Of a stretch of 42,342 nt of DNA, positions 5,998 through 37,631 are shown piece by piece. This DNA is from Bdellovibrionales bacterium (GTDB taxonomy: Bacteria > Bdellovibrionota > Bdellovibrionia > Bdellovibrionales > UBA1609): assembly GCA_019695175.1 (NCBI GenBank), contig JAIBAM010000024.1:1-42342 (forward strand). The letters run 5' to 3'. Below the pieces are notes generated by a model, which was not told the origin of the DNA, made no database searches, and saw nothing but the letters and a program-made list of their open reading frames with translations. Made by a program: the position numbers and the translations under genes. Positions within the stretch are counted from its first letter, which is position 1. Each line of letters opens with the position of its first letter.

Positions 5998-6006
5998 GAA
6001 CTATGG

Positions 6007-7146: not shown

Positions 7147-7181
7147 ATTTACTAAGAATTATTTTTATAGAGGTTCGTCAA

Positions 7182-11353: not shown

Positions 11354-11366
11354 ATGATTCCTTTGT

Positions 11367-12008
11367 TTAATAGGTCATTGAGTCAAATGAACTTAAAAAA
11401 GCTGAACAAGTTGCTAAAAATAGGTTTCTTGTTTGAGCGGCTTGTGTCATTTGAGTTGAACTTAAGTTAGAAACAAATTCATTTCTAAAATCTTTAAAAA
11501 GAACTTTTTCTGAATTTGATGAAGTTCGACTCCAAAATGCTAATGCCATCCTATCAAGCGTTCCATAATAACTAGAATCACTCAATTCACTCAGTCCGCC
11601 ATTGAAATTAACTAAAGAAAAAATCCTATTGGAATTGGTGCTGTTCGCCACAGGGATTATTCCGTTACAAACCTCTCCCGCCAATGAAGTCGTAGCAATC
11701 AACCAGGGACCATTAAACATATTAAGATTATTCCCTGCAGATAAAGAACTTTCTCTTAAGAGAAATTCATTTAGTTGACTGGTTTTAATATTTTGAGTTT
11801 GATCGGTTAAATTAAGCATGGACTGGAATGCTTGATCAAAGTTAAGCAGTGCAAAAGGAAGATCTGGATTTATGTTTTGTCCCGGAACAATTTCATTGTG
11901 ACTGGAAAAATCCATAGAGTTAAAGCCAGTCTGACTGCAGTTGATTCCTTGAATAAAACTTAAAGACATAATTGTGATCCACGTAATAATAAATTTTATT
12001 TGCTTCAT
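11367..12008 (-). CDS. small secreted protein of the heme/Tat unit, unknown function
   Basis: 213 aa. The ATG at 12008 is preceded by a G-rich ribosome site (GGGGGCGGG). A hydrophobic signal segment (residues 4-20) ends at IQGINCSQ; the Cys suggests a lipoprotein, but the lipobox is not canonical. The rest is Ser/Asn-rich with three further Cys and no recognisable motif. It lies 13 bases upstream of the DUF1501-like gene and 30 bases after the CxxCH gene, so it should be co-transcribed with both. A chaperone or accessory role is only a guess from position. Confidence 0.65.
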   Translation of the reverse strand: MKQIKFIITWITIMSLSFIQGINCSQTGFNSMDFSSHNEIVPGQNINPDLPFALLNFDQAFQSMLNLTDQTQNIKTSQLNEFLLRESSLSAGNNLNMFNGPWLIATTSLAGEVCNGIIPVANSTNSNRIFSLVNFNGGLSELSDSSYYGTLDRMALAFWSRTSSNSEKVLFKDFRNEFVSNLSSTQMTQAAQTRNLFLATCSAFLSSFDSMTY

Positions 12009-12038
12009 TTTCCCGCCCCCTTGGAAACATTCACAAAG

Positions 12039-13325
12039 CTAGTGACATGCGGAGTGCGTAATCACACTCTCAAAAAGTTTTTTTATATTGTAATTATTGC
12101 GTTCAAAGTCTTGGCCAAGAAGTGTCATAATTTGGATTTGCTCACCTAGAGACATGCTTTTTATGCAAACGCTATCAAAAACCCTTTTAGCCATACACTG
12201 ACTAAATCGACTAGAATTTGCTATTAAAGCGCCAAAAGAATTCACTCCATAACCTGTAACTTCATCATTCATACTTGCAGAGGCTGGACCTCGATTATTA
12301 GAATTTATGGAGCTAAATCCTCGCCATCCAAAATTGTTTGAGTTAATTCCTCGATTTGCATTATTAATCCAAGAGTCATTTGTTACGATATATCCACCAG
12401 AGTAAACTGTTTCGTTTTTATTGAGTTTGGTCATCACCCCTTTGGCATCAGCTTGAGCCCTTGCTCCTTGTGTTCCGTTGACTCCAGAGTGAACGGCAAA
12501 GGTGCTTGGAAAATCCCATTTCGCAAAAGCTCCCCGAAACCCATCCATAACAGAATGACACCCCTTACATGATGTCTTATACTTCCCATGATCTCCTCCT
12601 GGAAACCGATCGATGTCTCGCCCAATTCTATTTTCTGAAGCCGAGGTATCAGCCCATTTTTCAATGGGAAGGCATGCAAATTCTCTGATTGCAAACTCCA
12701 CAGGTCTTCGATTGGTTCCAGCAAAAGCGTGTGCCGACATAAAAGCTCGAGAGGTCAGAACACCAGCTGGATCTGGATTGGCTACAGCAGTGGAGTTGCT
12801 ATTCATAACCGATTGTCCATTTACTTTTATCAATATGGATCCTATGTCGATAGATTTGTTGTCCAAAGCTTTGTAGTGATTGTTGGAGGTAAGAATGTCC
12901 CTAATTAAATTGGACGGGATGTTTGGAAGTTTACTAGGGTCAGCCATGTAAAAATAATTTCCAGTTAATAGTTCCCTTGAATCTAGGTTGTCGCGAGTGA
13001 TTCCCATAAATGTTGCAGAAAAATCATTAAATTCAGTTCTTAGGTTTTCTTCCCGTGAAGACATTTTTAACGCCAGTTGTTTTACTGTGATATTTAAGAA
13101 TTGTGGTTGGGCTAAAGCCAATTGAATCGCTTCACTTTTTTTTCCCTTTGATAAGAGGTCACTCATTTGCAGTAGAACAGGGCCATTGCCGGGCCATCGA
13201 ACTCCTGTGAGTCTTTCTAGCATCCACTTTGCCTGTGAATTTGTCTCTAGCTGAGACATGGATTGAAGAGAAAAAGAAAAAATAAAAAAAACTAACCCTA
13301 GTATCGTCCATCTTTTAATTTCCAT
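12039..13325 (-). CDS. exported monoheme protein, DUF1588-like
   Basis: About 428 aa from ATG 13325 (MEIKRWTILG), preceded by a GGGGGG run; a TTG at 13340 would add five residues. An N-terminal signal peptide ends near LQSMSQ. RAFMSAHAFAGTNRRPVEFAIREFACLPIEKW followed by CKGCHSVMDGFRGAFAKWDF mirrors the DUF1588 arrangement, in which a 'releases new lining of hydrophobic residues then CxxCHxxMDPxGFALENFD' order is typical. The heme c site is CKGCH, near residues 253-257 from this start. It is first in a four-gene unit with the DUF1501-like Tat protein and a diheme lipoprotein. Planctomycete DUF1592/DUF1588 plus DUF1501/DUF1552 pairs are the closest known analogy; their function is unproven. 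Confidence 0.62.
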   Translation of the reverse strand: MEIKRWTILGLVFFIFSFSLQSMSQLETNSQAKWMLERLTGVRWPGNGPVLLQMSDLLSKGKKSEAIQLALAQPQFLNITVKQLALKMSSREENLRTEFNDFSATFMGITRDNLDSRELLTGNYFYMADPSKLPNIPSNLIRDILTSNNHYKALDNKSIDIGSILIKVNGQSVMNSNSTAVANPDPAGVLTSRAFMSAHAFAGTNRRPVEFAIREFACLPIEKWADTSASENRIGRDIDRFPGGDHGKYKTSCKGCHSVMDGFRGAFAKWDFPSTFAVHSGVNGTQGARAQADAKGVMTKLNKNETVYSGGYIVTNDSWINNANRGINSNNFGWRGFSSINSNNRGPASASMNDEVTGYGVNSFGALIANSSRFSQCMAKRVFDSVCIKSMSLGEQIQIMTLLGQDFERNNYNIKKLFESVITHSACH

Positions 13326-13668
13326 GTCCCCCCCGGACAAGTAATGAACGTACCAAAAGTATGCATTTTCTAAAGATAATACATTTTGCGATTAAACAAT
13401 AATTATTATTTAATCATTGTTTCAAATTAATACATAATATCGTCTAAATCTTAGGACTTAGGAGCAGTTCCTTAGGACTTAGGAGCAGTTCGAACAGACT
13501 CAACATTTGCTTCGGAGAGATCCGAATCAGTTTGGGTTATCATTTTTTTAAAAGACGGAAATTCTTCAAAGAAGAGAAAAAGTGCCGATAAGTTCCATGC
13601 ATTTCAATGGTTTAATTATAAACTCAAATGGATTTTAATTTAAATTTTATATTCTACCAGGGTGGGAA
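13326..13668. other. 343-base divergent intergenic region
   Basis: This AT-rich gap separates the minus-strand heme/Tat unit from the plus-strand moxR triad and should carry both promoters. I could not fix a convincing -35/-10 pair. Its one clear structure is the 21-bp tandem duplication at 13450-13491. Confidence 0.5.
13450..13491. repeat. 21-bp perfect tandem duplication
   Basis: Two exact, adjacent copies begin at 13450 and 13471. Each contains CTTAGGACTTAGGAGCAGTT plus one C, and within each copy CTTAGGA recurs as CTTAGGAG, so the TTAGGA element occurs four times in 42 bases. It lies in the divergent promoter region and could be a multi-site regulator target or a replication-slippage product. 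Confidence 0.85.
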
Positions 13669-14619
13669 ATGAGTTGGTTAAAAAGAGCAGGACAAAAAGC
13701 GGGGCTCACTCTATCGGAAATGGCCCAGGTTGTGGATCGGGCTGAAACAATTATTTTAGGAAAGCAACAACAACTGAAATTAGCGATGACGGCGATTCTC
13801 GCTCATGGACACGTTTTATTAGAAGATGTCCCCGGGGTGGGAAAAACCACTTTAGTTAAAACACTAGCGCAATTATTGGGTTTAAAAACTAAAAGAATAC
13901 AATTCACAAATGATCTACTTCCCGCAGATATTTTAGGTACCACAGTTTTTGACAATATAAAAAATGAGTTTGTATTCCATCCAGGTCCTATTTTCGCTCA
14001 AATTATTATTGCAGATGAACTCAACCGCGCTACACCAAAAACACAAAGTGCTCTTTTACAAGCAATGGAGGAGCGAAGGGTTACAGTGGATGGTAGAACC
14101 TATTCTTTGCCAGATCCATTTTTTGTTGTGGCCACTCAAAACCCGTCCCATCAAATGGGTACTTATCCCTTGCCTGAATCACAATTAGACCGATTTATGT
14201 TTAGAATTGAAATGGGGTATCCGAACCGCAAAGCAGAATATGATTTGTTAACTCGTAACTATTCCGAGTCTTCGTTGGAAATAAGTCCAATGGTTGATGA
14301 AGACAAACTAAAAAAATGGCAAAATCAGGTTGAAAAAGTTTTTGTGAGTCCAGCTGTTGTCAATTACTTACAAAACTTAATCGATTGCACCAGATCAGGC
14401 GTCTATCAGGTTCTTGGTTTATCCCCTCGTGCAGGATTGGCTTGGTTGAAAGCAGCTCGTTCTTGGGCGCTTCTTAATGATCGACATGCCGTTTTACCAG
14501 AAGATATTCAATCTGTTGGAGTGGCACTGATGAGTCATCGTATCGCGCAGGCTAAACACAATTTACAAACTGGGGATCAGTTGGCTCGAGAAATTTTAGC
14601 AAAAGTTTCTGTGGATTGA
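13669..14619 (+). CDS. MoxR-family AAA+ ATPase
   Basis: 316 aa from ATG 13669. Walker A is PGVGKTTL (about residues 55-62) and Walker B is IIADELNRATPKTQSALLQAMEE. The family-typical VTVDGRTYSLPDPFFVVATQNPSHQMGTYPLPESQLDRF block (sensor 1 and arginine-finger region) follows, and SPRAGLAWLKAARSWAL lies near the C-terminus. The length matches MoxR proteins (about 310-330 aa). MoxR ATPases act as chaperones or metal/cofactor-insertion helpers and are usually paired with DUF58 and transglutaminase membrane proteins. Exactly that set follows here, four bases after the stop. Confidence 0.93.
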   Translation: MSWLKRAGQKAGLTLSEMAQVVDRAETIILGKQQQLKLAMTAILAHGHVLLEDVPGVGKTTLVKTLAQLLGLKTKRIQFTNDLLPADILGTTVFDNIKNEFVFHPGPIFAQIIIADELNRATPKTQSALLQAMEERRVTVDGRTYSLPDPFFVVATQNPSHQMGTYPLPESQLDRFMFRIEMGYPNRKAEYDLLTRNYSESSLEISPMVDEDKLKKWQNQVEKVFVSPAVVNYLQNLIDCTRSGVYQVLGLSPRAGLAWLKAARSWALLNDRHAVLPEDIQSVGVALMSHRIAQAKHNLQTGDQLAREILAKVSVD

Positions 14620-14623
14620 ACTT

Positions 14624-15544
14624 GTGAAAAATAAAATAAAAAATTTAAATCGATGCTTTATAAAACCTACAGGCCATGGAATTGTATTTTTAATTTTGAT
14701 TTTTTTAATTTTAGCTGTAGCATTGAGAGTTGAAAATAATTTAGTGTTTATATTGGGATTTGTGCTTTTTGCTGTACTAACAGTAACCATCCCTATGACT
14801 TACTATAATATAAAAAATTTAAATTTGAACTTCATTGAGGTGAGTGAAGTTTTTTCAGGTGATACTTTAACTATTAAATTAGATTTATTTAATAACTCCA
14901 AACAAAATAAAACATCTATTCAAGTTGCAGAAAAAGTGGATAAAGAGGGAAGCTCTTTTTTTATTCATGAAATTCCAAGTCAAACTCATTGGACTGTCGC
15001 ATTAAACTTGCAACCTTTGCTTCGAGGAAAACATGCGATCCCACATATCATTATTTCAACAATTTACCCCCTTGGTTTATTTAAATCTTGGATCATAATG
15101 GAAATTCGTGGTGATTTTTTTGTTTACCCCAAAAAAATAAACATTCGTAAATTAAACCCACAACCAGGACAATGGGTTTCTGGAAATGGGGATTCTTTTT
15201 CTGAAAATAGTTTTGCGGATGATTTTAAAGAGCATAAACCATTTACAGAGGGGCAATCCCAATATCGTGTGGACTGGAAGGCTTTCGCGCGAAGGGGAGT
15301 TTTGCTGAGTAAACACTATGAATCTAATGATCAACAACACTACTTATTGGATTGGAATAAAGTGAAAGAACTGCCTTTTGAAGAGGCGGTTAGTCAGTTG
15401 GCAACATGGATCGAATATCTCCGAAATTCTGAACATAACTTTGCGGTAATTCTTGATGGATTTCATTCTGGTTGGGATCAGGGTTTTTATCATGGGAAAA
15501 AGTGTTTACAGTATTTGTCCACATTTCAGAGAAAATCTGTATGA
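14624..15544 (+). CDS. DUF58 membrane protein
   Basis: 306 aa from GTG 14624, four bases after moxR. Two N-terminal transmembrane segments (HGIVFLILIFLILAVAL and NLVFILGFVLFAVLTVTI) form a short hairpin. A soluble part follows with the DUF58 core: NSFADDFKEHKPFTEGQSQYRVDWKAFARRGVLLSKHYE, matching the family R-x-Y-x-x-G-D..R.IDW..(S/A)AR pattern. DUF58 proteins partner MoxR ATPases and carry a VWA-like fold. The stop overlaps the next gene's ATG (ATGA at 15541), implying coupled translation with the transglutaminase. Confidence 0.85.
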   Translation: MKNKIKNLNRCFIKPTGHGIVFLILIFLILAVALRVENNLVFILGFVLFAVLTVTIPMTYYNIKNLNLNFIEVSEVFSGDTLTIKLDLFNNSKQNKTSIQVAEKVDKEGSSFFIHEIPSQTHWTVALNLQPLLRGKHAIPHIIISTIYPLGLFKSWIIMEIRGDFFVYPKKINIRKLNPQPGQWVSGNGDSFSENSFADDFKEHKPFTEGQSQYRVDWKAFARRGVLLSKHYESNDQQHYLLDWNKVKELPFEEAVSQLATWIEYLRNSEHNFAVILDGFHSGWDQGFYHGKKCLQYLSTFQRKSV

Positions 15545-17607
15545 AGGGATATTCTCAAAAATATATTTATCTATTAGTTATCTGTAATATTCTTATGATG
15601 AGTGGAGATCTTCCTCAATGGGTTGTCGTAACCTCATTATTGTTTGTGTCCGCGAGGTGGATTGGTGACATTCTTTTTGCTTTTACGGCTTGGTCCAAAA
15701 TAACGTTACTATTTTTGATATTTTCATTGCTGGGCCTTTGGTTTGAGTTTGGAATCGAAGTAAATTTCCAGTCCATGGGTTCGTTGCTGTTACTTATGGT
15801 TGCTGTCAAAACATTTTCAATCCGAAATTACCGTGATTTGATGGTTGCAGCGTATCTTTGTTTAATTATCCTCATGGGAAAATTAGTTTTAGAACAGTCA
15901 ATGATCAGTAGCTTTTATTTATTTTTTGATTTAATGGCTATTTTAACCCTCATGCATTTCTATCATTTGTCACAGAAATCATTGTTCCGATCTTGGTGGT
16001 ATATTTTTAGAGTTCTCCTATTCAGTTCACCTATAGTTATGACCCTATTTTTACTGTTTCCAAGATTCAATTTTAAAATGATAGGAGTTTCTCCTTTACA
16101 GACTTCATCCGTTTCATCTGTCGGTTTTTCTGGTGAAATAAATTTAAATACTACGAATAATTTATCCAACGGCGATGAAATCGTTTTTAGAGCCTTTTTT
16201 AATAATAATGCCATTCCTCCCCAAGATCAGCTTTATTGGAGAGGGGCCGTGCTTTCGGAGCCGAAAGGAATGAATTGGAGTTCAAAAAAAAAGGCATGGG
16301 TTCATAACGAAAATGATTTTTCAGAATTGAAAGAGGCAAGCTCTTTACAACAGGGGTCGGATCCATTTTCTGTGAATGATTCTAACTTGGTAAAGGTTGT
16401 ATTGGAATCGGTTTCTCAAAAAAATTTATTTATTTTAGATTGGCCACTTTCTGTAAAAATGTCTGAGAGTTCAAGACAATATGATGTGATAAAGAGGGAT
16501 CATTTGATCTATGAATTAAAAAGCTCCTCTGCTGTTCGAGAAAGTTATTTTTTTAGCTACTCACCTATTCCAAAAGAAATTAGGTGGTCAAATTTTTCCT
16601 GGAATCAGGAACTTAAATCAGAACCAATGGAGCCACAAACGGAAAAACTTGTAGGGCAATGGCGAGAAAAAAAAATTGATACTCTCGGTAAATTGAATCT
16701 TATTCGTAAATTTATTGTGGACAATAATTTTATTTATTCATTGAATGCGCCTAAAGTGAAGAGTTTAGAGGAATTTTTATTTTACTCTCGCCAAGGTTAT
16801 TGTGAGCACTTTGCAAGCGCTGTGACTCAACTTTTACGCTATTTAGAAGTGCCTGCTCATGTTGTTGTGGGTTATCAGGGGGGTAAGGTAAGCCTGTTGA
16901 GGGATTATGTTATTGTATCCAGTAAAGATGCCCATGCCTGGGTTGAGTATTGGAGTACAGAAAAAAAAAGATGGGATCGCATTGATCCTACTCTATGGGT
17001 AGCTGCAGAAAGAATTCTCCAGGGAAGTGAAAAATTTTTCTCAGAACACTTAATAGATGGTGGGTTGGGTGTAGGTAACATGTGGGTCTCGGTGTTGATG
17101 GGTTCTAAGGCCTGGGATGGTTTAGAACATTTACGATTGATTTTGGATCAAATGGAAATTTCTTGGACGCAGTTGCTTCTCCACTATGATTTGTCCCAAC
17201 AAAAGAAATTTTTAAAAAAATGGGGATTTTTTTACTTAAATAAACTGAGTCTTTTGGGTCTTTTCTTAGTTTTCATCGTTTTGGTATTTAGTCTTTTTTG
17301 GTATCTAAATCATCGTCAATTAAAAAACAAATTGGACTTGGATTTACAGCTCTATTTAAAACTTTGTCAGCTCCTAAAAGCTATGGGATTAAATAAACCA
17401 CCATCCGAAGGTCCTTATCACTTTAGTCTTCGCGCTCAAGAACAATTCCCGCAAATTGCTTTACAGTTGCATGCTGTTTTCAATAGGTTTATAGAGTCTC
17501 GTTATTGTAATAAACCGTTGTCAAAGGGTGAGCTCCGTCTTTACCTAAGGGCTTGTTCGGAGATGATGCGTCTAAGAGGGACTGAGGGGAAAACTCTTAA
17601 AAATTGA
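15541..17607 (+). CDS. TgpA-like membrane transglutaminase (DUF3488 / transglutaminase core)
   Basis: 688 aa from ATG 15541, which overlaps the DUF58 stop by three bases. About five or six transmembrane segments fill the first ~170 residues (DUF3488-type). The periplasmic core then has a papain-like triad: Cys421 in QGYCEHFASAVTQLLR, His465 in DAHAWVEYW and Asp482 in WDRIDPT. A further membrane span (LLGLFLVFIVLVFSLFWYL) and a cytoplasmic DUF4129-like tail end the protein. The architecture and length match TgpA-type proteins (about 650-700 aa). Together with MoxR and DUF58 this is a widespread envelope-associated triad. Its natural substrate is not known from sequence. Confidence 0.9.
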   Translation: MKGYSQKYIYLLVICNILMMSGDLPQWVVVTSLLFVSARWIGDILFAFTAWSKITLLFLIFSLLGLWFEFGIEVNFQSMGSLLLLMVAVKTFSIRNYRDLMVAAYLCLIILMGKLVLEQSMISSFYLFFDLMAILTLMHFYHLSQKSLFRSWWYIFRVLLFSSPIVMTLFLLFPRFNFKMIGVSPLQTSSVSSVGFSGEINLNTTNNLSNGDEIVFRAFFNNNAIPPQDQLYWRGAVLSEPKGMNWSSKKKAWVHNENDFSELKEASSLQQGSDPFSVNDSNLVKVVLESVSQKNLFILDWPLSVKMSESSRQYDVIKRDHLIYELKSSSAVRESYFFSYSPIPKEIRWSNFSWNQELKSEPMEPQTEKLVGQWREKKIDTLGKLNLIRKFIVDNNFIYSLNAPKVKSLEEFLFYSRQGYCEHFASAVTQLLRYLEVPAHVVVGYQGGKVSLLRDYVIVSSKDAHAWVEYWSTEKKRWDRIDPTLWVAAERILQGSEKFFSEHLIDGGLGVGNMWVSVLMGSKAWDGLEHLRLILDQMEISWTQLLLHYDLSQQKKFLKKWGFFYLNKLSLLGLFLVFIVLVFSLFWYLNHRQLKNKLDLDLQLYLKLCQLLKAMGLNKPPSEGPYHFSLRAQEQFPQIALQLHAVFNRFIESRYCNKPLSKGELRLYLRACSEMMRLRGTEGKTLKN

Positions 17608-21231: not shown

Positions 21232-21918
21232 ATGAACCAAAAACCATTAGCACTCTTGTCATTAATTTTGTGTTTTATCTATCTCCAATTTTTTTGGACG
21301 GCAAAAGCGATTCAAAATCCAACACCTTATCTTAAAAAAAAAATAGCCTCTCTACAAATTGAATTAAAACGATCGCACCTTCGAGAGCTTCTCCAAGTCG
21401 AAAACCTGCAGCAATTTCGTCAGGATGTTGCCGTCATTTTACCAGAAGCTTTAAAGCATGTGACGCAAAAACCAAAGGACTATCCCTTACGGAATATGGC
21501 ATCAGTTCTTATGACTTCTCAGAATGAAAAACTTGCCATGATCGGGGCCAAAAACTTGTTTTTGACAGGGAAGGCTTTATTCAAAAAAAAGGATTTTATT
21601 TCAGCTCGAAGAATGTTTGATAAAGTTATTAAAAATTATAGTTATTCTGAACATGTAATTGAGTCTTTTTATTTACTTTCAGAGTGTGAGTACGCTCTGG
21701 GTAATTTGGAAAGTTCCCAGGCAATAATTGACCAAATGGTGACGCTTTTCCCAGAAAGCGAAATGACGGGATATGCTTTGATTCGCTTGGGGATCATCTT
21801 AAGTGAACGTCATTTTGTAGAAAATGCCATTCAAACCTATCGTTTGATACTTAACACCTCACCCTACCAAGGGGTGATAAATTTAGCAAAGAGTCAACTG
21901 AGTGAGTTGGGACTGTAA
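21232..21918 (+). CDS. exported TPR protein (YbgF/BamD-like)
   Basis: 228 aa from ATG 21232. A signal peptide (ALLSLILCFIYLQFFWTAKA|I) is followed by a helical region. At least three TPR-like helix pairs begin near residue 105: NLFLTGKALFKKKDFISARRMFDKVIKNY, ESFYLLSECEYALGNLESSQAIIDQMVTLFP and GYALIRLGIILSERHFVENAIQTYRLILN. Such periplasmic TPR proteins scaffold envelope complexes. The next gene begins at the base after its stop, so the two are co-expressed. No lipobox Cys is present and the coiled-coil trimerisation region of YbgF is not evident, so a specific name is not justified. Confidence 0.75.
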   Translation: MNQKPLALLSLILCFIYLQFFWTAKAIQNPTPYLKKKIASLQIELKRSHLRELLQVENLQQFRQDVAVILPEALKHVTQKPKDYPLRNMASVLMTSQNEKLAMIGAKNLFLTGKALFKKKDFISARRMFDKVIKNYSYSEHVIESFYLLSECEYALGNLESSQAIIDQMVTLFPESEMTGYALIRLGIILSERHFVENAIQTYRLILNTSPYQGVINLAKSQLSELGL

Positions 21919-28074: not shown

Positions 28075-28103
28075 AGGGCTCTTTTAAAAAGAGCCCTTTT
28101 TTT
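28075..28103 (+). terminator. strong intrinsic terminator after the second GGC(L/I)GG-domain gene
   Basis: AGGGCTCTT pairs with AAGAGCCCT around a short A/T loop, followed by seven T. It isolates the 26.3-28.0 kb pair from the large operon that follows. Confidence 0.9.
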
Positions 28104-28716
28104 AGAATGTGGTTTAAACCACTCGTGTTTAAAAAATGACACATTAAAATAAACTTAATTTATTGAAAATAAAGTTTATTTTTATATAAACTTAACAAAA
28201 GTGGTTTCAAATTGGTGAATACCTGCATTTATTTATCGATACAAAAAGATTTTCTTATTCAATACTGTAATTAATTTATGAAATGAAAAAGTCAGGTTAC
28301 AGCGGCGTATTAGAGTGTTAAAACGGCACGTTAGCGCTCATTACGGGTGAAAACTAAAACAACATAAATACTAAGTTTATTGAAATGAGAAAAAGGTATG
28401 ACTTTTGATTTGTGTAATTTCGTTTCGTTATTTGCTGTTTCAGCAAAATCTTCGAATTCTGTGAAGAGCTTCCCGTTGGTTACAAACGTACTCAATAACA
28501 CCGTTTTTTGTTCTAATGAATTTTCTGCTAAACATCTTCGATATTTCCTCGGGCAAAGATGCAAAAACTTTTTTAGTGTGAAATCTAAATATCCACGAGG
28601 ACAATGCTACCGCAAAATGGATTTTCTATAAATAGAATAGAAAGTATTATAAAAATTACATCTTTTTAAAAAATTGTGAGGGTAGAAAAATTTTTAACTG
28701 GTGCAAAAAAATAACA
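28104..28716. promoter_or_regulatory. 613-base palindrome-rich region upstream of the giant-lipoprotein operon
   Basis: A perfect 14-bp palindrome GTGGTTTAAACCAC lies at 28109-28122, and GTGGTTT recurs at 28201. Between them an ATAAACTT element occurs three times in alternating orientation: 28149-28156, the complement at 28172-28179, and 28186-28193. The first two form a 9-bp inverted repeat (AATAAACTT/AAGTTTATT). The remaining sequence to 28716 is AT-rich. Open frames on both strands (28331-28631) lack family resemblance or clear ribosome sites. I interpret the block as a control region for the gene starting at 28717. Its regulator is unknown. Confidence 0.5.
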
Positions 28717-29913
28717 TTGTGGTTGAAGGTGTTAATTGCTTTTTTTCTGTGGGCATCTTGGGGTTATGGGGTTTTAGTTGGAGCCGAAGAATTAGATGCG
28801 GGAGGTGTAGCAGAGGCCTCCACAAAAAAAATCCCGGCTGAATCTCCATTAGAGAATCTGGATCAAGAAGATAAATTTCAAGCTTGGGACTATTCTTGGA
28901 GGGGGAGAATGTTTGCTTTGGGAGTTTCTGACACTACAGAGGAGAGTCGTGTTTCTGGTTTGCAGCTTTCCGGTGGGTTAAAAAAGAAATTTAGCGAATA
29001 TTTTGATTTTGCTACGAGTTTACAAGCTCGATTTGAAACGGGTACCACCCACTCTTTATATGAAGTGAATCGGGTGGCCAATGGTATATGGCTGGATGAA
29101 GCCCAAGCCAATGTACATTTGGTTCCCCATTTTGTGACTTTATCTGCAGGAGCTATCAATCAGAGATATTTACAGAATCCACTTCTTCTCACCGAATTAA
29201 GTTTCCCGGCCGTGCAGGAAAAGTTCCAATGGGAAGGGGCTGGGCTATCTCTTGGTTTGGTGATACAGCAAGCGGTTCCCACATCCATGAGCCTTTCCAC
29301 TCGATCTGTTGCGAAGGAAAAACTGCCCTCATTTTTCACCGAAACCTTTTTTGCAAACTACAACCCTCAACAGTCGTTATGGTCCATAAATGGAAGAGTG
29401 GGAGCCTTTGCTTTCTATGATCTTCCCTCTTCGGTGGCTTACGACAGTAGAACACAGGGGAACTTTGCAGAAGGGGAATTCCCTGAAAACTCCAGCTTTC
29501 GTTACGGTTTTCGTGGTTTGACTTACGGCGGAGACCTGGGTCTTAAGCTAAAAAATGTACAATTAAAAGCGGGTGCGGATGCTTTGATTAACCAAGAAGC
29601 TCCTCAAAAGTATGGCAGAGGTCTTTTGACCTATGTACAAGCAGGGGTCAAAGGCTTCGGTCAGTGGACTCTGATTCCGAGGGCAGAGTACTTCCGTAAC
29701 GAACGACAAAGCTCGCCTGCGTTTTATAATTCTGCAGACTATGGGCACAACAATCGTCATGGTTTCGCCTATGAGCTTAAAGCTGAAAATCTTAAGCTGG
29801 GTGTAGCCTTCAAGGCCAAATATTCGGATGCGCAATTAATTGAGGAATTCCCCTCTCAAGCTAATACTAAAATAATTATGATTTATATGGATATATTCAA
29901 TGGCGTTAATTGA
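28717..29913 (+). CDS. probable outer-membrane beta-barrel protein
   Basis: 398 aa if TTG 28717 is the start; TTG 28723 is equally possible, as no ATG lies near the signal peptide. The N-terminus (VLIAFFLWASWGYGVLVGA|EE) is a signal peptide. After a short acidic region the chain shows alternating amphipathic strands separated by Gly/Asn/Asp turns and rich in aromatics, e.g. GLKKKFSEYFDFATSLQARFETG, FRYGFRGLTYGGDLGLKLKNVQLKAGADALI, HGFAYELKAENLKLGVAFKAKYS, with no hydrophobic helices. That is the look of a barrel of roughly 14-18 strands. The terminal strand (IIMIYMDIF) has an aromatic residue but not a final Phe. It heads a three-gene unit with two giant lipoproteins. Family not recognised. 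Confidence 0.65.
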   Translation: MWLKVLIAFFLWASWGYGVLVGAEELDAGGVAEASTKKIPAESPLENLDQEDKFQAWDYSWRGRMFALGVSDTTEESRVSGLQLSGGLKKKFSEYFDFATSLQARFETGTTHSLYEVNRVANGIWLDEAQANVHLVPHFVTLSAGAINQRYLQNPLLLTELSFPAVQEKFQWEGAGLSLGLVIQQAVPTSMSLSTRSVAKEKLPSFFTETFFANYNPQQSLWSINGRVGAFAFYDLPSSVAYDSRTQGNFAEGEFPENSSFRYGFRGLTYGGDLGLKLKNVQLKAGADALINQEAPQKYGRGLLTYVQAGVKGFGQWTLIPRAEYFRNERQSSPAFYNSADYGHNNRHGFAYELKAENLKLGVAFKAKYSDAQLIEEFPSQANTKIIMIYMDIFNGVN

Positions 29914-29983
29914 TTTTAATAAAATATTTTCTAGACAAATAAATCGTTTTTTCAACAATGATTTTAATTTTATCCAGAACACC

Positions 29984-32900
29984 ATGGTTTTTAATTCAAA
30001 GACGGTTGGGATGCTGTCGTTAAGCCTGGCGCTTGTGCTTCTGTCGACGGGTTGTACCTTAAGGACGGAAAAGGGTGAGTCTTCAGGAGATGCTACTTTT
30101 CGTGTGGACTATGTTGTTGAGCCTGGTGTTGTAAAAAATGATAAGACCAATTTAGATTGGAATATTCCTAAGTCCCGAATTTTTGATTTTGTGGCTTGCT
30201 TACGTCCCATATCTCAAAAAAATCCTATTGTTGGAGATGTCTTTGAGATTTTAGGTGGGGAAGGTGTTTATCAGCGTACAACGGATAGTCAAGGCTGTTT
30301 GCACTGGTCTGAGAGCATCCCATTTGAGTATTTTGCAAAACCTACGTATGTGACTGTAGAACGCAAATTCAAAGCCCTAAAACGACAGGTGGGTGTGGCC
30401 AGTTATCGTTTTGGTATTAACCCTTGGAGTGGACTTACGGATACAAGACCTCCGTTGATTGACTTTAGGCGTACGAATGCTTTTCATGTTGTTGCAGGTA
30501 ATGTCGGCGTTGAGGCCTTAAGAGGTCAGGGTGGAGAGGGTGCACAAATGTTTATCCCCACCATTTCGGCAGTTCTGGAGCAACCTTTTACAGAGGAAGA
30601 AACGCGACACAGTTCAGATTATAATTTGCATGTGGTTTTAGAACCAAAAGTTCTTGTGAAAGACATGGTGGGGCAAAGACAAAAAATAAGTTTGGAAAAG
30701 GGTTCGTTTTGGATGACTGCTGATGTGGTTAAGATAGATCCTTCTCAGTCTACCTCGGCTGGCATAGACCTTATTCCGCCGATAGGGACTCCTCTTTTGG
30801 CTTTATCTGAAAAAAAGTTAGTTGAATTTAGCAATGGGAGAGTTGATTTCAATGTGCCTAAAAGACTGGTCTCCCTTATTGAACACCAGTCTAAATATAG
30901 TTTAGTTATTAGCATTGAGCCAGGACCTAATGCCCCAGCAAAAATAAATAAATTTTATGGAATTTATTCCGCAAAAGAACTTGTATGTTTGAGTCAGGGT
31001 TGTACTTTCGAATTAAGTGATCAGTTCAATGGTTGGATTCATCCCGATGTGGTGGGTCAACAAATAACTTTATTGAATCCGAAAGTTACAGATGAGGAGC
31101 AGAGACTGATAGAAACTCAACGTGGGAGATTTAACTTTGAACAAGTGAGTTTGACGCCAGCAACGGCACCAAGGATAGCGCCTAACCAAGCAGAAAATAG
31201 TATCTCAAATACAGTTGTTTTTGATCTTAGTGTCCGTGTCGCAGATACGTTGCAACGTGGGGCAGGTGTGCTTCAAAGGGCCTTTCATATTTACGGAATG
31301 ACCCCCTATGATGAGCGTCCTGTAAGTTCAATTGATCTCAAGCAGTTGAAATTAAAAAAAACTACAGATACAGGTATCAATGGTGATCTAACTTGGTTTG
31401 ATTCTATAGTAGCTAAAACCTACGAGAAGAGAGTCTATAAAAAAATGCAGATAGTTTTCCAAGATGTTTTAACTAAAAATTTATACAAAGCTTGTGTTTT
31501 TGTAGCTCCCTTTAACAAAATACAACCCATTAAGGACTGTCGAAAAGATGCTAATGAAATGGTTCTTACACAAAGGGGGATCGGCCGTCCTACGTTAAGT
31601 GTGGGGCATATTGAGTTGAAGCGAAATGGAACCAATCTTAAAGATTATAATATTATCACTCCTGATTTGTTTTTGGAGTCCTCTTTTATTTACGACTTTA
31701 AAGCTACGTTAAATATTCATCGTGCTGATTCGTTGGAAAATCCGGAAACAGAAGTAGAAAGAATAGCCCCAGCTTGGTGGCTTGTAACTTTAGTTATGTT
31801 TAAAAAAAATGTTTCAGGTAATTCAACGAGCGATGGGAAAGATGGGAATATAGTTCCATTGACAACCTTTGAAAAGGTTTTTTGCGGCTATAAAGATCCA
31901 GAAATGCAGTTGGAGTTAATGGTACAAGATTTGGGGTTAATGCAGCAGCGTGGGTTTTTTGCGTTGCAATTTAAACCATTAAAACAAAACAGACTAAAGT
32001 TCATCGAAGGTCCATCCCCTAATACTTCAATAGATTGCCCTGGTCAGGAAGTGGCGACTGATTCCCCCATAGAAATTGATGATGAGAATGATCTGCAATC
32101 GCCAGTTCATTTCATTTCTTGGATCCCAAGCCAAAGTGGATCACCAATTGTAAATTTTAGTCCTAGTAATTATCAGGACCCCAAAATAAAGGACTTAATA
32201 AATGAATTAAGGACAGAAATTGCGTCCTCTGATTTGCATGTATTACATGAAAAAAATATGCAAAAAAGAAAAACAATTGCCGAACAGGTGGTAAAAGATC
32301 AAACCAGTAATAAGGAAAATAATGATTGGTTTGCTTTTGGTGCGGCCATGTTGCACATGCCCTACGAACTTAAGAGCACTCAAGATCTGAAACACTTCGC
32401 GATAACAGCTTTTAATTGGACAAGGGACAAACGTGCACAATGGAGTCCTTTTGTTAGACCAGACCCTCAGCCCGTGGGGGCTACTCCTCCTAGTAGCTTG
32501 GGGGATAAAAATTCTAGGGGGTTCAACGAACAGCGATATAATTATTTGTTGGAGCAGTGGAATAAGTATTCCAGACACCAATTTGAAATAGGAAGTGATT
32601 TCGTAAATCAAAAGGATTTTATTGCTCCGTCGGAACCAAGTGTAATTGATGATTCAGGTGCATATTGGTATACTAACAAGCAACATTTGCAGTTATTGCT
32701 CCATAAGATTAAAGAGAGTAATATTGAATCAAAAGAATTCTTTGGCATGCTTTCCTGCATGGATCAGATTTTTTGGTCGGACAGAGCCAGTCAAGTCGCC
32801 AGATGTGCCGATGTGAAAACGGATGAAGGCAAAAGAAATTTAGAAATAGCCCACTGGCTTTGTTTAGTGACTTCACGGAACCCTGATGCAACAGATTGCT

Positions 32901-33934
32901 CTGGAACCAAACCCATCACAGAAATGATTGTTGAGAAGAAAATTCATGTTTATAGATTAAATTCGTCACGACTAGTTGCTGGGGTCTCTTCAAGTCTCAC
33001 AATCTCTTCAAGCTTTGATGTGGGATCTTTTGTGGCGACTGATTATGGAACTATGTTTTCTGATGGTGTTACAGGGTCTGTAACAGCTGAGGCTTCTTAT
33101 TCTATGCCGGTCTCAGTTGTTAAGTTGGGGGCTGGAGTTGCGACATCACTTTCAAAAACAAAAGCGACTGTACGATTTGATTTTAATCGTGAATGGACTG
33201 ACAACCTTGCGGGGTTTGGTGCGGGCATGACTCTGTCAAATCAGGAAATGATTGTGGAGTTGGAGCTGGGTGAATACAGAAAATGCTACATCGTTCGTTT
33301 TGATATGAACGAAAAATCTGGGTTGTATATTTGTGAGGGAATTACAAGTGATTCACCACTGACTCTTAAAGAGCACTATTATGTACTGTTTAATCCTGTA
33401 GTGCCTGAGTTACTTCTTGATTCTGCTGATCAACGAAATCATATGGTTGTACAAATGCGAGGGCAGAGATCCTACTATAGATTTCTTAGCCATATTGACT
33501 GGTCCTTGCGTCCATTCCACCTTAACGGTATTTCCAGGCCGGTCGGCGAAATGGTGCGAACGCTTAAGCTAAGAATACGAGATGAAGAGGTAGAAAGAGC
33601 AAATGCGACGGCTAAAATGGAAACAGATAGTTCTAGAACTACAGCAAACTTGAATCGTGGGCCTGATTGGGCAGTTAATTCTAGAGTTACAGAAAACTTG
33701 AAGCGTGGGCCTGGTTGGGCAGTGCCTTATGTAATAGATTCTTCACCCCCAGAGAGCTCCGCTTATAGAGTGAATATAGAAAAACTGAGAGAGAGAGATA
33801 TGCCAATATTTGGATTTCAAGCTTTTCAGGACTTAATAAATGATAGAGTTCCAAATGGTAACGTCCATGATGCTGCTAGCGAACCTACTAGAGCCTATCC
33901 AGATGATCGAGCGTATAAGTCTTATGGTGATTGA
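29984..33934 (+). CDS. giant lipoprotein A of the barrel/lipoprotein operon
   Basis: 1316 aa from ATG 29984; an in-frame ATG at 29900 overlaps the barrel gene by 14 bases but would add a charged stretch before the signal. The lipobox is LLSTGC, so the mature protein is lipid-anchored at Cys24. The N-terminal block, with CLRPISQ...GCLHWSESIPFE...YVTVERKF...NPWSGL, has a clear counterpart in the next gene, as does a C-terminal block (YRKCYIVRF...CEG...LKEHYYVLFNP). A Gly/Ser/Thr/Val-rich amphipathic section (FDVGSFVATDYG...AGVATSLSK) near residue 1030 resembles membrane-active or barrel strands. A 16-residue tandem repeat (SR(T/V)TxNLxRGPxWAV) sits near the C-terminus. No known domain recognised. 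Confidence 0.8.
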   Translation: MVFNSKTVGMLSLSLALVLLSTGCTLRTEKGESSGDATFRVDYVVEPGVVKNDKTNLDWNIPKSRIFDFVACLRPISQKNPIVGDVFEILGGEGVYQRTTDSQGCLHWSESIPFEYFAKPTYVTVERKFKALKRQVGVASYRFGINPWSGLTDTRPPLIDFRRTNAFHVVAGNVGVEALRGQGGEGAQMFIPTISAVLEQPFTEEETRHSSDYNLHVVLEPKVLVKDMVGQRQKISLEKGSFWMTADVVKIDPSQSTSAGIDLIPPIGTPLLALSEKKLVEFSNGRVDFNVPKRLVSLIEHQSKYSLVISIEPGPNAPAKINKFYGIYSAKELVCLSQGCTFELSDQFNGWIHPDVVGQQITLLNPKVTDEEQRLIETQRGRFNFEQVSLTPATAPRIAPNQAENSISNTVVFDLSVRVADTLQRGAGVLQRAFHIYGMTPYDERPVSSIDLKQLKLKKTTDTGINGDLTWFDSIVAKTYEKRVYKKMQIVFQDVLTKNLYKACVFVAPFNKIQPIKDCRKDANEMVLTQRGIGRPTLSVGHIELKRNGTNLKDYNIITPDLFLESSFIYDFKATLNIHRADSLENPETEVERIAPAWWLVTLVMFKKNVSGNSTSDGKDGNIVPLTTFEKVFCGYKDPEMQLELMVQDLGLMQQRGFFALQFKPLKQNRLKFIEGPSPNTSIDCPGQEVATDSPIEIDDENDLQSPVHFISWIPSQSGSPIVNFSPSNYQDPKIKDLINELRTEIASSDLHVLHEKNMQKRKTIAEQVVKDQTSNKENNDWFAFGAAMLHMPYELKSTQDLKHFAITAFNWTRDKRAQWSPFVRPDPQPVGATPPSSLGDKNSRGFNEQRYNYLLEQWNKYSRHQFEIGSDFVNQKDFIAPSEPSVIDDSGAYWYTNKQHLQLLLHKIKESNIESKEFFGMLSCMDQIFWSDRASQVARCADVKTDEGKRNLEIAHWLCLVTSRNPDATDCSGTKPITEMIVEKKIHVYRLNSSRLVAGVSSSLTISSSFDVGSFVATDYGTMFSDGVTGSVTAEASYSMPVSVVKLGAGVATSLSKTKATVRFDFNREWTDNLAGFGAGMTLSNQEMIVELELGEYRKCYIVRFDMNEKSGLYICEGITSDSPLTLKEHYYVLFNPVVPELLLDSADQRNHMVVQMRGQRSYYRFLSHIDWSLRPFHLNGISRPVGEMVRTLKLRIRDEEVERANATAKMETDSSRTTANLNRGPDWAVNSRVTENLKRGPGWAVPYVIDSSPPESSAYRVNIEKLRERDMPIFGFQAFQDLINDRVPNGNVHDAASEPTRAYPDDRAYKSYGD
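33631..33726 (+). repeat. in-frame 48-bp tandem duplication in lipoprotein A
   Basis: Two adjacent 48-base units start at 33631 and 33679, differing at a few positions, and encode SRTTANLNRGPDWAVN and SRVTENLKRGPGWAVP. The exact multiple of 16 codons keeps the frame. It is probably a recent duplication in a tolerant C-terminal tail. Confidence 0.85.
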
Positions 33935-33962
33935 TGTGGGTTGGAAAAAAGTTGTTTAATAC

Positions 33963-36900
33963 ATGAAAAATTTATTTCTAATTTTTACGATGATAGGGAC
34001 GATTTTTTTCATAGGATGTCACAAGTCTATGAATAAATCAAAGTCCGTTGAAGTGAGAATGCTTACAGGGGCTATCCTTGACGGAGAATCTACTAACAAA
34101 TGGAGTTTATTTAATAAAACTAGAATCAGTTTCCTTGTTTGCTTACAGTTTGATGATTTAAAACAACCTGTTGGAGTAGCAGAATGGGAAGTGAAGGGAG
34201 GCAATAACGGATCGGTTAGTATTTTCTCCGAGGAGAACGGTTGTCTCACCTGGCAAGAGTCTTTTGATGTGGATCCGGTCAGTCAACCCGGATATATCGC
34301 TATTGAAAGGGTGATTTATGGAAAAAAGAAAGAATTCAATCCTGTTTCAGTTAAAGCTCTTGTAAACCCATGGAGTGGTTTGGTTGGAAGTGAACCTGCT
34401 GTGGTGAATCCACTTTTAAGTCCACTGGTGCCAAGAATGGCGTTTCAAGACTCTGTGGAGAATTTAAAAAAAGGGGAGTTGTTTTTTAAAGAAGTAAGAT
34501 ATGAATTTTTTAGCACACCGATGCGGTTGAACTTGTCTTTGTTTCCTCAGCTAAAAACCACAGCTATGGATGGCAAAGAGACTTACATTGAAATTAAATC
34601 AGGTGTTGTGAATTTAAAAATTCAGATATTTTATCAGTCAAATAAAGAGAAAAGCGCTGTCCCTGTTAGTAAAATCATAGCTTTAGAAAATTTAAAATTT
34701 GAGGGTGGACTTTTAGTTTTGCAAAACTTGCAACCGGACTGGAACGGTGGGTTGAGTAAAAATGCAGGACAGTATTTTATTCAGTTAAGTGGGGAGCCAG
34801 TGGGCTCTGCTGTGGGAATGCAACCATTTTCCCATACCTTTTCTGTTGGACCTTATCAGCGATTGGCTGGAGGTGTGACCCCTTACCAACCTGATTTAGC
34901 TATTGTTATGGGTATGGAAGGAGGAAAAGAAGCTCGCTCAGGGGATACAATAGTTGGAAATGTAAGATCTGACGTGGGGCCTATGGCAGGTTCGGCTCAT
35001 TTAGTCTTTAGTTTGGGAAAAATCAGAGGCCAGCCGGGTTCTGTCAATATGGATCAGGCTGCCGGGGAGGATCCATTACAAAGAACTAAGTTAATTCAGT
35101 TTAGCTTACCAGTTCAACCTGAAACTCTATCTAAGGAAAGTCTTGAGGGAAGGCTATTTACTGTCTCCTCTTTGTCAGACGCTAAAAACAACTTTTCAGT
35201 TAGAGTTGTTGGTGGGTATCTTATATGGACGGACATAATTAAATATTCTTACGTCAAACGGTTTCAACCTCTTAATTTTGAAATTTCTGTGACCCATGTT
35301 GAGACCGGAAAAAGTATAAAAAAGGGCTTTAAAGTAACCCCTGGTGAAAATAGTTATTTTGTAATTGATGATAAAATCGGGACTAATTTTTACGGCTCTT
35401 TAGTTAAGGGAACCAAACCATTTTTATATTTAAGTACGACCTGCTTTGAAAATGGAGAGAGAACTTTCTCCATTGACCCAGGTTCTTTGGCTCTGTCCCA
35501 GGTAAAATTATATAAAACATTTGAATTCACCCCAAAGGTAGAGTTTCTAACTGTATTTTCCCCCGACCTTAAATCAGAGGATCTTATTGCTGGTGCCTAC
35601 CAAATTACAATGGCATTTTATAGTCGAGAATATTTTCTTGATGGTAACATATCTACGTTACAAAAACCTTTAGCGGTGACTCGTAAGGTTATAGATCACA
35701 TTGGTTCAACATCCAAAGCTGAATTTGAGGTTAAGTTTTTACCGATATATGCAAATATGATGGGTTTTGCTGTTATTCAAATGGATTTTTTTGACAGGAA
35801 AAAGAACCGAGTCATACCAAAAGAAGAACTTGGAATGGGGCCTTCTGCACAGGTGTTTGAGGTAGATATAAATGGACAGGGATGTTCCGTTGTTCCTGCT
35901 CGAATAAATACAAAGAATTTTTTAGGCAGTTCCGTGGCTAAGAACATGATAGAGGATCCCAATTTTAATTTAATTTCTATCGCTGATCAGTGGGGTGAGG
36001 AGGAAGAAGGGCTTAAACAAAAACTTATTGAAAAAAATAAAAATCAAGATCCGCGCATGAGTTCTGATTGGAATAATTATGCCATAGATATGGGATTAAC
36101 TCCGGTGGAACTAAATAACCAAACTGACTTGACCAAATATGGGTTTACCAAAGACACCACATTAAGTGAGGTAGAAGAAGCCTTAGATTGTGCTTATAAG
36201 GTGAATTATCAGAAGTTTGGTAATGGTGCGAAGTGCATGTATGACTTTAAAAATGGAAATCCTCAATTTTTACTTTATAAGGCGATAACTAAACATTGGG
36301 GTGAAGAATTAACTAAACAAAGCGATAAAGAGTGGAATAAAAGGATTAAAAATGATCCAAGAATGATAACTGAAAGAATCAAGTCATTGCGAATGTCGCC
36401 AGGAACTAAATTTATAAAAAGACAAAAAGATTTACTGAGGGATTTAATGTCTGACTTTTACTCGGACCCTTCTAAAGTAGGTTGGGTTTTCAGAGTACAA
36501 AAATTTGTTTATCCGTATCAACTTACAAAGTTAGAAAATCTCTCTGGCTTTGGGGAAAGAACAACAAGGACTATTCAACTTAAATCTGTAGTTCAATCTA
36601 TATTTGGATATGAAAAGTTGGATGATATAGGGGGTGTGGTTGGGACCACTTTAAGTTTTAAGAAACCAATTCTTTCCACCAACGGACAAACAAATGGTGC
36701 ACTTGTTGAGGGAGCCGGGGTCGATGCTGCCGGAGGTACTATGGGTGGTTCAGGTGGCGGTGCTGTAGGTATAACGCCGCATAAAAAATTTGGTTCTGAT
36801 CTCTATTCCAAATTAGATTTCTCAAAAAAGGGCGGAACTTTTAGATGGGAGGCATTTTACGAGACGATGGATACTACTGCAGCTTACGATCAAAGCGTAG

Positions 36901-37631
36901 ATTTTCAGATGGAGGACATTCATTTAAATGTGGAATTTGCCAGCTATAGAACTTGTTATAGTGTAGAAGCGAGTCTTAATGTGGCTGCTTTTAATGAAGA
37001 TCAAAAAGGCAGTTCAAGATGGAAGAATCTGAATTTTAGTTTGGATTATAATGAAGCCTATAAACCAAAGTTTTTCTTTTGCCTCCCTGTAAAAAATGAA
37101 ACTAAAACTTTACAAGAAACTTATTATTTTTTAACGAATCTTCCTCCGGAACATAGTCTTTTGCTAAACAATAAATCTATTATAAATAGGTTTTTCCTCA
37201 TTCTGCGAGGAAAGAATCAATATGATTACTTCATAAAAAATCTTGGTAACCAAACGGAAAAAATTTATCGAAACATTTGGGATCCTGAGATGAGAATTAC
37301 TGAACCAGTTGCAGCTACATTTCTTAAGATAAAAGCTCAGTCCTTTTTGATGAATCAGGAAGTTTATCCGGGGTTGATGATGGATGAACTTCCTACAAAC
37401 GACAGTTATGACACTATTGAAAATTTAGATAGCTGGTGGACAGGTGCGAAGAGAAAATTTAGGAATGCTGTAGATTATTACTTCAATCCTCTATACGCTT
37501 TTGGCAATGGGAGTTACAAGACTCCAGCTAAAAGGGATATTTTTTACCAGAATGGTTCTGAGTGTAGAGTTTATAATGAACAGTGGCGAGATGGTTTCCC
37601 TTGCACTGGGCAGCCTGAAGAAACCCCGTGA
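33963..37631 (+). CDS. giant lipoprotein B, paralogue of lipoprotein A
   Basis: 1222 aa from ATG 33963, 29 bases after the preceding stop. The lipobox is FFIGC with Cys19. The N-terminal block aligns with lipoprotein A: FLVCLQFDD...GCLTWQESFDVD...YIAIERVI...LVNPWSGL, including a conserved Cys pair that may form a disulfide. The C-terminal block also aligns: YRTCYSVEA...FFCLP...LQETYYFLTNLPPEHSLLL...FFLILRGKNQYDYF. Between them are Ig-like, beta-rich stretches and a charged helical section (residues ~670-830) with a Gly-rich AGGTMGGSGGGAVG segment. No enzyme motif is visible. The pair with the upstream barrel suggests an outer-membrane surface complex. Confidence 0.8.
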   Translation: MKNLFLIFTMIGTIFFIGCHKSMNKSKSVEVRMLTGAILDGESTNKWSLFNKTRISFLVCLQFDDLKQPVGVAEWEVKGGNNGSVSIFSEENGCLTWQESFDVDPVSQPGYIAIERVIYGKKKEFNPVSVKALVNPWSGLVGSEPAVVNPLLSPLVPRMAFQDSVENLKKGELFFKEVRYEFFSTPMRLNLSLFPQLKTTAMDGKETYIEIKSGVVNLKIQIFYQSNKEKSAVPVSKIIALENLKFEGGLLVLQNLQPDWNGGLSKNAGQYFIQLSGEPVGSAVGMQPFSHTFSVGPYQRLAGGVTPYQPDLAIVMGMEGGKEARSGDTIVGNVRSDVGPMAGSAHLVFSLGKIRGQPGSVNMDQAAGEDPLQRTKLIQFSLPVQPETLSKESLEGRLFTVSSLSDAKNNFSVRVVGGYLIWTDIIKYSYVKRFQPLNFEISVTHVETGKSIKKGFKVTPGENSYFVIDDKIGTNFYGSLVKGTKPFLYLSTTCFENGERTFSIDPGSLALSQVKLYKTFEFTPKVEFLTVFSPDLKSEDLIAGAYQITMAFYSREYFLDGNISTLQKPLAVTRKVIDHIGSTSKAEFEVKFLPIYANMMGFAVIQMDFFDRKKNRVIPKEELGMGPSAQVFEVDINGQGCSVVPARINTKNFLGSSVAKNMIEDPNFNLISIADQWGEEEEGLKQKLIEKNKNQDPRMSSDWNNYAIDMGLTPVELNNQTDLTKYGFTKDTTLSEVEEALDCAYKVNYQKFGNGAKCMYDFKNGNPQFLLYKAITKHWGEELTKQSDKEWNKRIKNDPRMITERIKSLRMSPGTKFIKRQKDLLRDLMSDFYSDPSKVGWVFRVQKFVYPYQLTKLENLSGFGERTTRTIQLKSVVQSIFGYEKLDDIGGVVGTTLSFKKPILSTNGQTNGALVEGAGVDAAGGTMGGSGGGAVGITPHKKFGSDLYSKLDFSKKGGTFRWEAFYETMDTTAAYDQSVDFQMEDIHLNVEFASYRTCYSVEASLNVAAFNEDQKGSSRWKNLNFSLDYNEAYKPKFFFCLPVKNETKTLQETYYFLTNLPPEHSLLLNNKSIINRFFLILRGKNQYDYFIKNLGNQTEKIYRNIWDPEMRITEPVAATFLKIKAQSFLMNQEVYPGLMMDELPTNDSYDTIENLDSWWTGAKRKFRNAVDYYFNPLYAFGNGSYKTPAKRDIFYQNGSECRVYNEQWRDGFPCTGQPEETP

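What the first reader, a model, noticed from the sequence alone, without database searches (positions are those of the whole stretch)
28717..37631. Operon of an outer-membrane barrel and two giant paralogous lipoproteins of unknown function
Three co-oriented genes with short gaps encode a probable beta-barrel and two lipoproteins of about 1316 and 1222 aa. The lipoproteins share an N-terminal Cys-paired block ending in NPWSGL and a C-terminal (Y)RxCY...YY block, so they arose by duplication, yet are too divergent to be redundant. No enzyme or secretion-system motif is visible. Size, anchoring and barrel partner suggest a surface complex such as an adhesin, a conduit or a prey/host-contact apparatus. 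The function is inference.
Basis: partly seen in the sequence, partly recalled or inferred. Interest (0 to 1): 0.8.

Follow-up and report, generated by a model that had tools for sequence, protein, structure and literature searches.

The report
Barrel plus giant pore-like surface lipoproteins
Predatory bacteria of the Bdellovibrio group and their relatives carry a conserved gene pair, an outer-membrane barrel and a giant lipid-anchored protein whose tail resembles the membrane-piercing part of pore-forming toxins, which may be an undescribed way of punching or spanning membranes.

Summary
The barrel (28717-29913), LipA (29900-33934) and LipB (33963-37631) are real ORFs with no Pfam or NCBIfam family. 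The unit is the pair barrel + giant lipoprotein. It recurs elsewhere in the same genome and across the phylum: barrel profile in 105/141 genomes of the order, lipoprotein C-terminal domain (CTD) in 116/242 genomes of the phylum, usually adjacent. In 81 of 107 loci the lipoprotein ATG lies exactly 14 nt before the barrel's end. LipB is a tandem duplicate of LipA; such doubling is rare.

Nearly all these lipoproteins share an N-terminal Cys-paired beta-sandwich ending NPW, usually repeated once, and a ~300-aa CTD holding an amphipathic hairpin with Ser/Thr at every other residue (0/20000 shuffles). All four PDB profile hits of the CTD are beta-pore-forming toxins aligned at their insertion hairpin; Foldseek puts aerolysin-family chains in its top 11 ranks; a composition-matched control gives none. 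E-values are individually weak and the CTD model is poor, so aerolysin membership is not claimed.

Best explanation: an OM-anchored, barrel-associated lipoprotein that oligomerises and inserts a beta-hairpin pore into its own OM or a contacted cell. Action on prey is inference.

The parts
28075..28097 (+). intrinsic-terminator-like hairpin with T tail, upstream of the operon
   Evidence: 10-bp stem, TTTTTT tail; pattern counts in the region are not above chance, so suggestive only
28717..29913 (+). probable outer-membrane beta-barrel protein, 398 aa, signal peptide and C-terminal strand
   Evidence: two family members match Porin_5 weakly; not modelled
29900..29913 (+). 14-nt overlap: LipA ATG inside the last codons of the barrel gene
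   Evidence: ATG at exactly -14 in 81 of 107 barrel genes (start codon of any kind in 84); about 2 expected by chance
29900..33934 (+). LipA, giant lipoprotein, 1344 aa from the overlapping ATG (Cys52 lipobox LSTGC)
30155..30436 (+). LipA NPW domain (Cys-paired beta-sandwich ending NPW)
   Evidence: E 2e-26
32906..33496 (+). LipA C-terminal domain with amphipathic Ser/Thr/Gly-rich hairpin stretch
   Evidence: E 1e-34; (richest S/T/G window starts at residue ~1028)
33963..37631 (+). LipB, second giant lipoprotein, 1222 aa (Cys19), tandem paralogue of LipA
34095..34379 (+). LipB NPW domain
   Evidence: E 8e-16
36795..37376 (+). LipB C-terminal domain; only the part after the hairpin matches the family model, the hairpin stretch being Gly-rich and degenerate
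   Evidence: HMM positions 121-308 of 311, E 4e-26

Best explanation
The trio is one local version of a two-gene outer-membrane system of Bdellovibrionota: a beta-barrel and a giant lipoprotein made from overlapping reading frames. The lipoprotein is anchored in the outer membrane by its N-terminal lipid, extends through tandem Ig/MG-like beta-sandwich domains (NPW domains), and ends in a domain whose long amphipathic Ser/Thr-lined hairpin works like the insertion hairpin of a beta-pore-forming toxin: several copies assemble and their hairpins form a shared transmembrane beta-barrel. The dedicated barrel protein co-assembles with it, probably helping it reach or cross the outer membrane. Shown: gene pair, fixed overlap, lipoboxes, conserved domains, hairpin pattern. 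Inferred: oligomerisation, insertion, surface exposure, and that the target is the outer membrane of a contacted (prey) cell or the producer's own. LipB is a diverged duplicate that has lost a clear hairpin and may be an accessory subunit.
For: Pair conserved: in the sampled loci nearly every barrel is followed by the lipoprotein (93 complete lipoproteins after removing duplicates, all with a lipobox by regex or by eye). Fixed start site at -14 in 81/107. Same pair elsewhere in the own genome, G000:C24. Co-occurrence at genome level. CTD in 99 of 103 lipoproteins. Hairpin: alternating hydrophobic/Ser-Thr columns over ~60 positions, longest every-other-residue Ser/Thr run 9, 0/20000 shuffles reach it. 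PDB profile search: all 4 hits up to E 10 are beta-pore-forming toxins (parasporin-2 0.011, natterin-like Dln1 0.064, monalysin 0.087, C2II 0.24), all on the insertion hairpin. A set of 15 diverse members finds three lysenin sequences (best 0.019) and C2II among seven hits; the column-shuffled control finds none. The 8-sequence full-length profile hits only monalysin, same stretch. Foldseek of the CTD model: ranks 1-11 and 13-18 are aerolysin-family chains. N-terminal half resembles MG/Ig beta-sandwich arrays. Two invariant Cys in the CTD fit an oxidising location.
Against: No single E-value against a toxin is significant; the shuffled control itself gives an unrelated hit at 0.004, so only the coherence of the hits counts. 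CTD model is weak (mean pLDDT 58, hairpin under 50), Foldseek probability at most 0.23, VIA-align Z at most 3.6 with no toxin above unrelated folds. No Pfam hit to aerolysin or ETX/MTX2 families. LipB lacks a clear hairpin. Many copies sit beside LPS-core genes in single copy, which could equally mean an envelope housekeeping role. One Bdellovibrio genome (G142) keeps the barrel but lacks the lipoprotein.
Confidence: 0.45

Rival explanations
1. Own-membrane conduit: the lipoprotein oligomerises from the periplasmic side into the producer's own outer membrane, as CsgG does, and with the barrel forms an export or uptake channel with no role on prey.
For: N-terminal lipid anchor and constant barrel partner; Ser/Thr-lined hairpins fit any multimeric beta-barrel; retained in genomes as small as about 1.2 Mb (G017, G030).
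Against: Size and fast divergence (members often ~15-25% identical) are unusual for a housekeeping channel; no cargo gene is linked.
Confidence: 0.25
2. Surface adhesin or recognition complex: the beta-sandwich arrays bind a partner and the CTD is only a Ser/Thr-rich structural tip; the barrel displays or secretes the lipoprotein (as SLAM does for surface lipoproteins).
For: Ig/MG-like domains in the N-terminal half; length variation ~580-1920 aa.
Against: The conserved part is the CTD with its hairpin and Cys pair, not a variable tip; a beta-sandwich resemblance at Z 6-8 is middling.
Confidence: 0.2
3. Envelope-lipid factor: the pair helps LPS or phospholipid assembly or repair, as its neighbourhood suggests.
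For: A probable Kdo-transferase (WaaA-like) gene in 40 loci and a heptosyltransferase-like gene in 31, across several families (identities read from sequence).
Against: The window copy and many other copies are elsewhere; no similarity to Lpt or Mla proteins was found; neighbours may be inherited by descent.
Confidence: 0.1

Closest known systems
Aerolysin-type beta-pore-forming toxins (aerolysin, parasporin-2, lysenin, monalysin, Dln1; also C2II)
   Same: long strands flanking an amphipathic Ser/Thr-lined hairpin with a hydrophobic tip; the only coherent group of profile and Foldseek hits
   Different: giant (600-1900 aa), lipid-anchored, domain at the C-terminus behind beta-sandwich arrays, encoded with an OM barrel; no significant sequence homology
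CsgG-type outer-membrane lipoprotein pores (from memory)
   Same: lipoprotein that would form a multi-subunit beta-barrel from hairpins
   Different: CsgG is about 260 aa and has no integral barrel partner; no similarity found here
SLAM / LptD-LptE type barrel-lipoprotein pairs (from memory)
   Same: dedicated OM barrel and lipoprotein acting together
   Different: this barrel has no large periplasmic domain; the lipoprotein is far larger; no homology found
Bacterial alpha-2-macroglobulin lipoproteins (ECAM)
   Same: large lipoprotein with MG-like domains; model residues 355-463 match 4zjg over 69 residues at 2.2 A
   Different: Z 6.3 is middling, no Pfam A2M hit, different C-terminus, barrel partner
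PopA, major OMP of B. bacteriovorus (PMC12228718)
   Same: OM barrel of the same bacteria
   Different: a different gene (bd0427); no relation was tested

Membership tests
Aerolysin superfamily of beta-pore-forming toxins | amphipathic Ser/Thr-rich insertion hairpin between long strands | tested here: met
   (0/20000), CTD model strands 138-171 and 221-252; family level and LipA, not LipB
Aerolysin superfamily of beta-pore-forming toxins | sequence homology to an aerolysin/ETX-MTX2 family model | tested here: not met
   no such Pfam hit among 81 CTDs at E 0.1; PDB profile hits at E 0.011-0.24 only
Aerolysin superfamily of beta-pore-forming toxins | aerolysin fold | tested here: inconclusive
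   Foldseek top ranks are aerolysins at E 7.8e-4 but probability <=0.23; VIA-align Z <=3.6; low-confidence model
Aerolysin superfamily of beta-pore-forming toxins | oligomerisation and pore formation | not testable with these tools
   needs purified protein
Outer-membrane lipoprotein | signal peptide with lipobox; OM-type +2 residue | tested here: met
   lipobox in all 93 lipoproteins examined (ten by eye); +2 residue Thr (LipA) and His (LipB), Asp in only 7 of 97 members scored; the +2 rule is from enterics
Outer-membrane beta-barrel (porin-like) | signal peptide, amphipathic strands, C-terminal beta-signal | tested here: inconclusive
   conserved C-terminal aromatic strand, two weak Porin_5 matches, best E 1.5e-4; no structure predicted
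Bacterial alpha-2-macroglobulin | MG-domain array with thioester domain | tested here: inconclusive
   single-domain match to 4zjg, Z 6.3; no Pfam A2M hit; thioester motif not looked for

The most novel reading that the evidence does not exclude
An undescribed contact weapon of predatory bacteria: a barrel-displayed, lipid-tethered pore-forming protein that reaches from the predator's outer membrane and inserts a multimeric beta-barrel into the prey envelope, linking the two cells at invasion; its absence from epibiotic Pseudobdellovibrio would reflect their not entering prey.
Probability: 0.17. Interest if true: 0.95.

Novelty: new variant of a known kind. Interest (0 to 1): 0.7.

Why it matters
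How Bdellovibrio-like predators breach and reseal the prey outer membrane is open (PMC10482364). If the C-terminal domain is a pore module, it would be a lipid-anchored, barrel-coupled counterpart of secreted pore-forming toxins.

Tried and rejected
Pfam, NCBIfam and PADLOC scans of the proteins: nothing meaningful (the weak TraI_2_C, MG423, ser_rich_anae_1 and ribosomal L3 hits were rejected as chance or composition). The wide barrel alignment was too divergent for the search for related loci; a Bdellovibrio-only one gave seven named loci. A hydrophobic-alternation amplitude test was not above its shuffled null; the Ser/Thr periodicity test was used instead. Foldseek/VIA on the full-length model tested only residues 16-468; its complement/TEP, transglutaminase and GH2 matches are read as generic beta-sandwiches. 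VIA-align listed no aerolysin above unrelated folds for the CTD, which excludes nothing. No match in plasmids. Literature: only two incidental co-mentions of Bdellovibrio and aerolysin, and no open text found that names the HD100 genes here (prefix search on estimated locus tags). The conserved-trio idea was dropped: the pair is the unit. Presence outside the phylum was not tested beyond plasmids and the PDB.

Full report
WHAT IS THERE. The window is an entire contig (C16, 42,342 bp) of a 2.6-Mb genome. The three ORFs are as described. LipB follows LipA after 28 nt. A terminator-like hairpin lies at 28075-28097, about 600 nt upstream, and a branched-chain amino-acid ABC transporter cluster begins at 37930, so the three genes look like one transcription unit; that is inference.

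A CONSERVED PAIR. The same genome has a second barrel-lipoprotein pair on contig C24. With the barrel as query, 42 of 59 relatives and 116 of 242 genomes of the phylum have it; with a 35-sequence profile, 105 of 141 genomes of the order. With a profile of the lipoprotein C-terminal domain, 116 of 242 genomes of the phylum match, largely the same genomes. In the fetched loci the lipoprotein follows directly; exceptions are contig ends, one divergent arrangement (L082), a subset of family f12 where the lipoprotein lies kilobases downstream (for example L169, L179, L206), and G142, where the lipoprotein gene is missing next to the barrel and no CTD is found in the genome. An ATG sits exactly at -14 in 81 of 107 barrel genes, 66 times as TATG, that is, using a Tyr codon of the barrel's final strand. 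So the start codon of the lipoprotein is built into the barrel's C-terminus, which points to translational coupling.

TRIO VERSUS PAIR. LipA and LipB group together in the CTD tree (83/95), LipB on a very long branch. G101 has three CTD lipoproteins in a row behind its barrel. Doubling is therefore a rare local expansion.

LIPOPROTEIN ARCHITECTURE. Nearly all members have a lipobox, an N-terminal NPW domain and usually a second copy about 330 residues later, a variable middle, and a ~300-aa CTD found in 99 of 103, with two invariant Cys and near-invariant Cys, Glu, Asp and Arg. Mature lengths range from about 580 to 1920 aa. The AlphaFold2 model of the B. bacteriovorus kdesi lipoprotein, from eight eligible sequences, is confident only in the N-terminal half (mean pLDDT 61), which matches generic beta-sandwich arrays including complement/TEP MG domains and one E. 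coli alpha-2-macroglobulin domain (Z 6-8, middling).

THE C-TERMINAL HAIRPIN. In the family profile, hydrophobic residues alternate with Ser/Thr through two long stretches joined by a hydrophobic tip; the longest strictly every-other-column Ser/Thr run is 9, reached by none of 20,000 shuffles. Against 177,635 PDB sequences the CTD profile has only four hits up to E 10, all beta-pore-forming toxins aligned on their insertion hairpin, E 0.011-0.24. A second, small and maximally diverse subset hits lysenin (three sequences) and C2II among seven hits. A column-shuffled version of that subset, with the same composition, hits none, but does give unrelated hits at E 0.004, so the single E-values mean little and the coherence is the evidence. 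Foldseek of a CTD-only model ranks aerolysin-family chains 1-11 and 13-18, but the model is poor (pLDDT 58) and VIA-align gives nothing above Z 3.6. Conclusion: it works like a pore-toxin hairpin with moderate probability; membership in the aerolysin superfamily is not claimed. LipA keeps the CTD with a Ser/Thr/Gly-rich stretch; in LipB the stretch is Gly-rich and outside the matched part.

DISTRIBUTION AND LIFESTYLE. G141 is B. bacteriovorus kdesi and G056 Bdellovibrio sp. UBA4095 by matching named contigs. All genomes of genus g38 (Bdellovibrio) listed have the barrel, and all but G142 of those listed have the CTD; in genus g33 (Pseudobdellovibrio) only G172 of the listed genomes clearly has them. 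JSS and qaytius are epibiotic (PMC11656739). This association is suggestive but confounded by descent, and many positive genomes have unknown lifestyles.

NEIGHBOURS. In 40 loci, including C24, a probable Kdo-transferase gene is near, in 31 a heptosyltransferase-like gene (identities by my reading of the sequences). The window copy lacks this context. The HD100 copy lies next to TolQ/TolR-like genes, possibly the edge of gliding cluster Bd2368-Bd2377, reported as up-regulated at prey exit (PMC12546842); the locus tags of the pair were not established.

JUDGEMENT. Shown: a phylum-wide, translationally overlapping barrel/giant-lipoprotein pair with defined conserved domains and a striking hairpin. 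Inferred: oligomerisation, membrane insertion, which membrane, and any role in predation.

Noticed in passing
window 5044-8615: Probable peptidoglycan-recycling cluster: LD-carboxypeptidase (S66), beta-lactamase-fold protein and Mur ligase (Mpl-like). Mur-ligase homologues also lie near the barrel in four other loci (L074, L088, L095, L178).
   Followed up: partly
window 13669-17607: MoxR ATPase, an unmatched 306-aa protein and a TgpA-type transglutaminase: a MoxR/TgpA operon.
   Followed up: no
window 8785-13340 (-): Cytochrome-c-like protein (8785-9927) with three upstream proteins that match no Pfam family.
   Followed up: no
window 21232-21918: TPR protein resembling YbgF/CpoB, BamD and, weakly, NCBIfam's CpoB-like predatory vesicle lipoprotein Bd0635.
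   Followed up: no
L190 (G142:C1:412000-430500): A Bdellovibrio genome that keeps the barrel gene but has lost the lipoprotein gene behind it: a natural single-gene loss that could be phenotyped.
   Followed up: partly
L194 / L037 (G006:C12 ~107.2-110.4 kb): Orphan CTD lipoprotein (1059 aa) on the opposite strand about 3 kb from a complete barrel-lipoprotein pair.
   Followed up: no
L198 (G101:C76): Barrel followed by three tandem CTD lipoproteins (790, 823, 827 aa).
   Followed up: partly
window 28100-28716: About 600 nt without an annotated ORF before the barrel gene; no Rfam match.
   Followed up: partly
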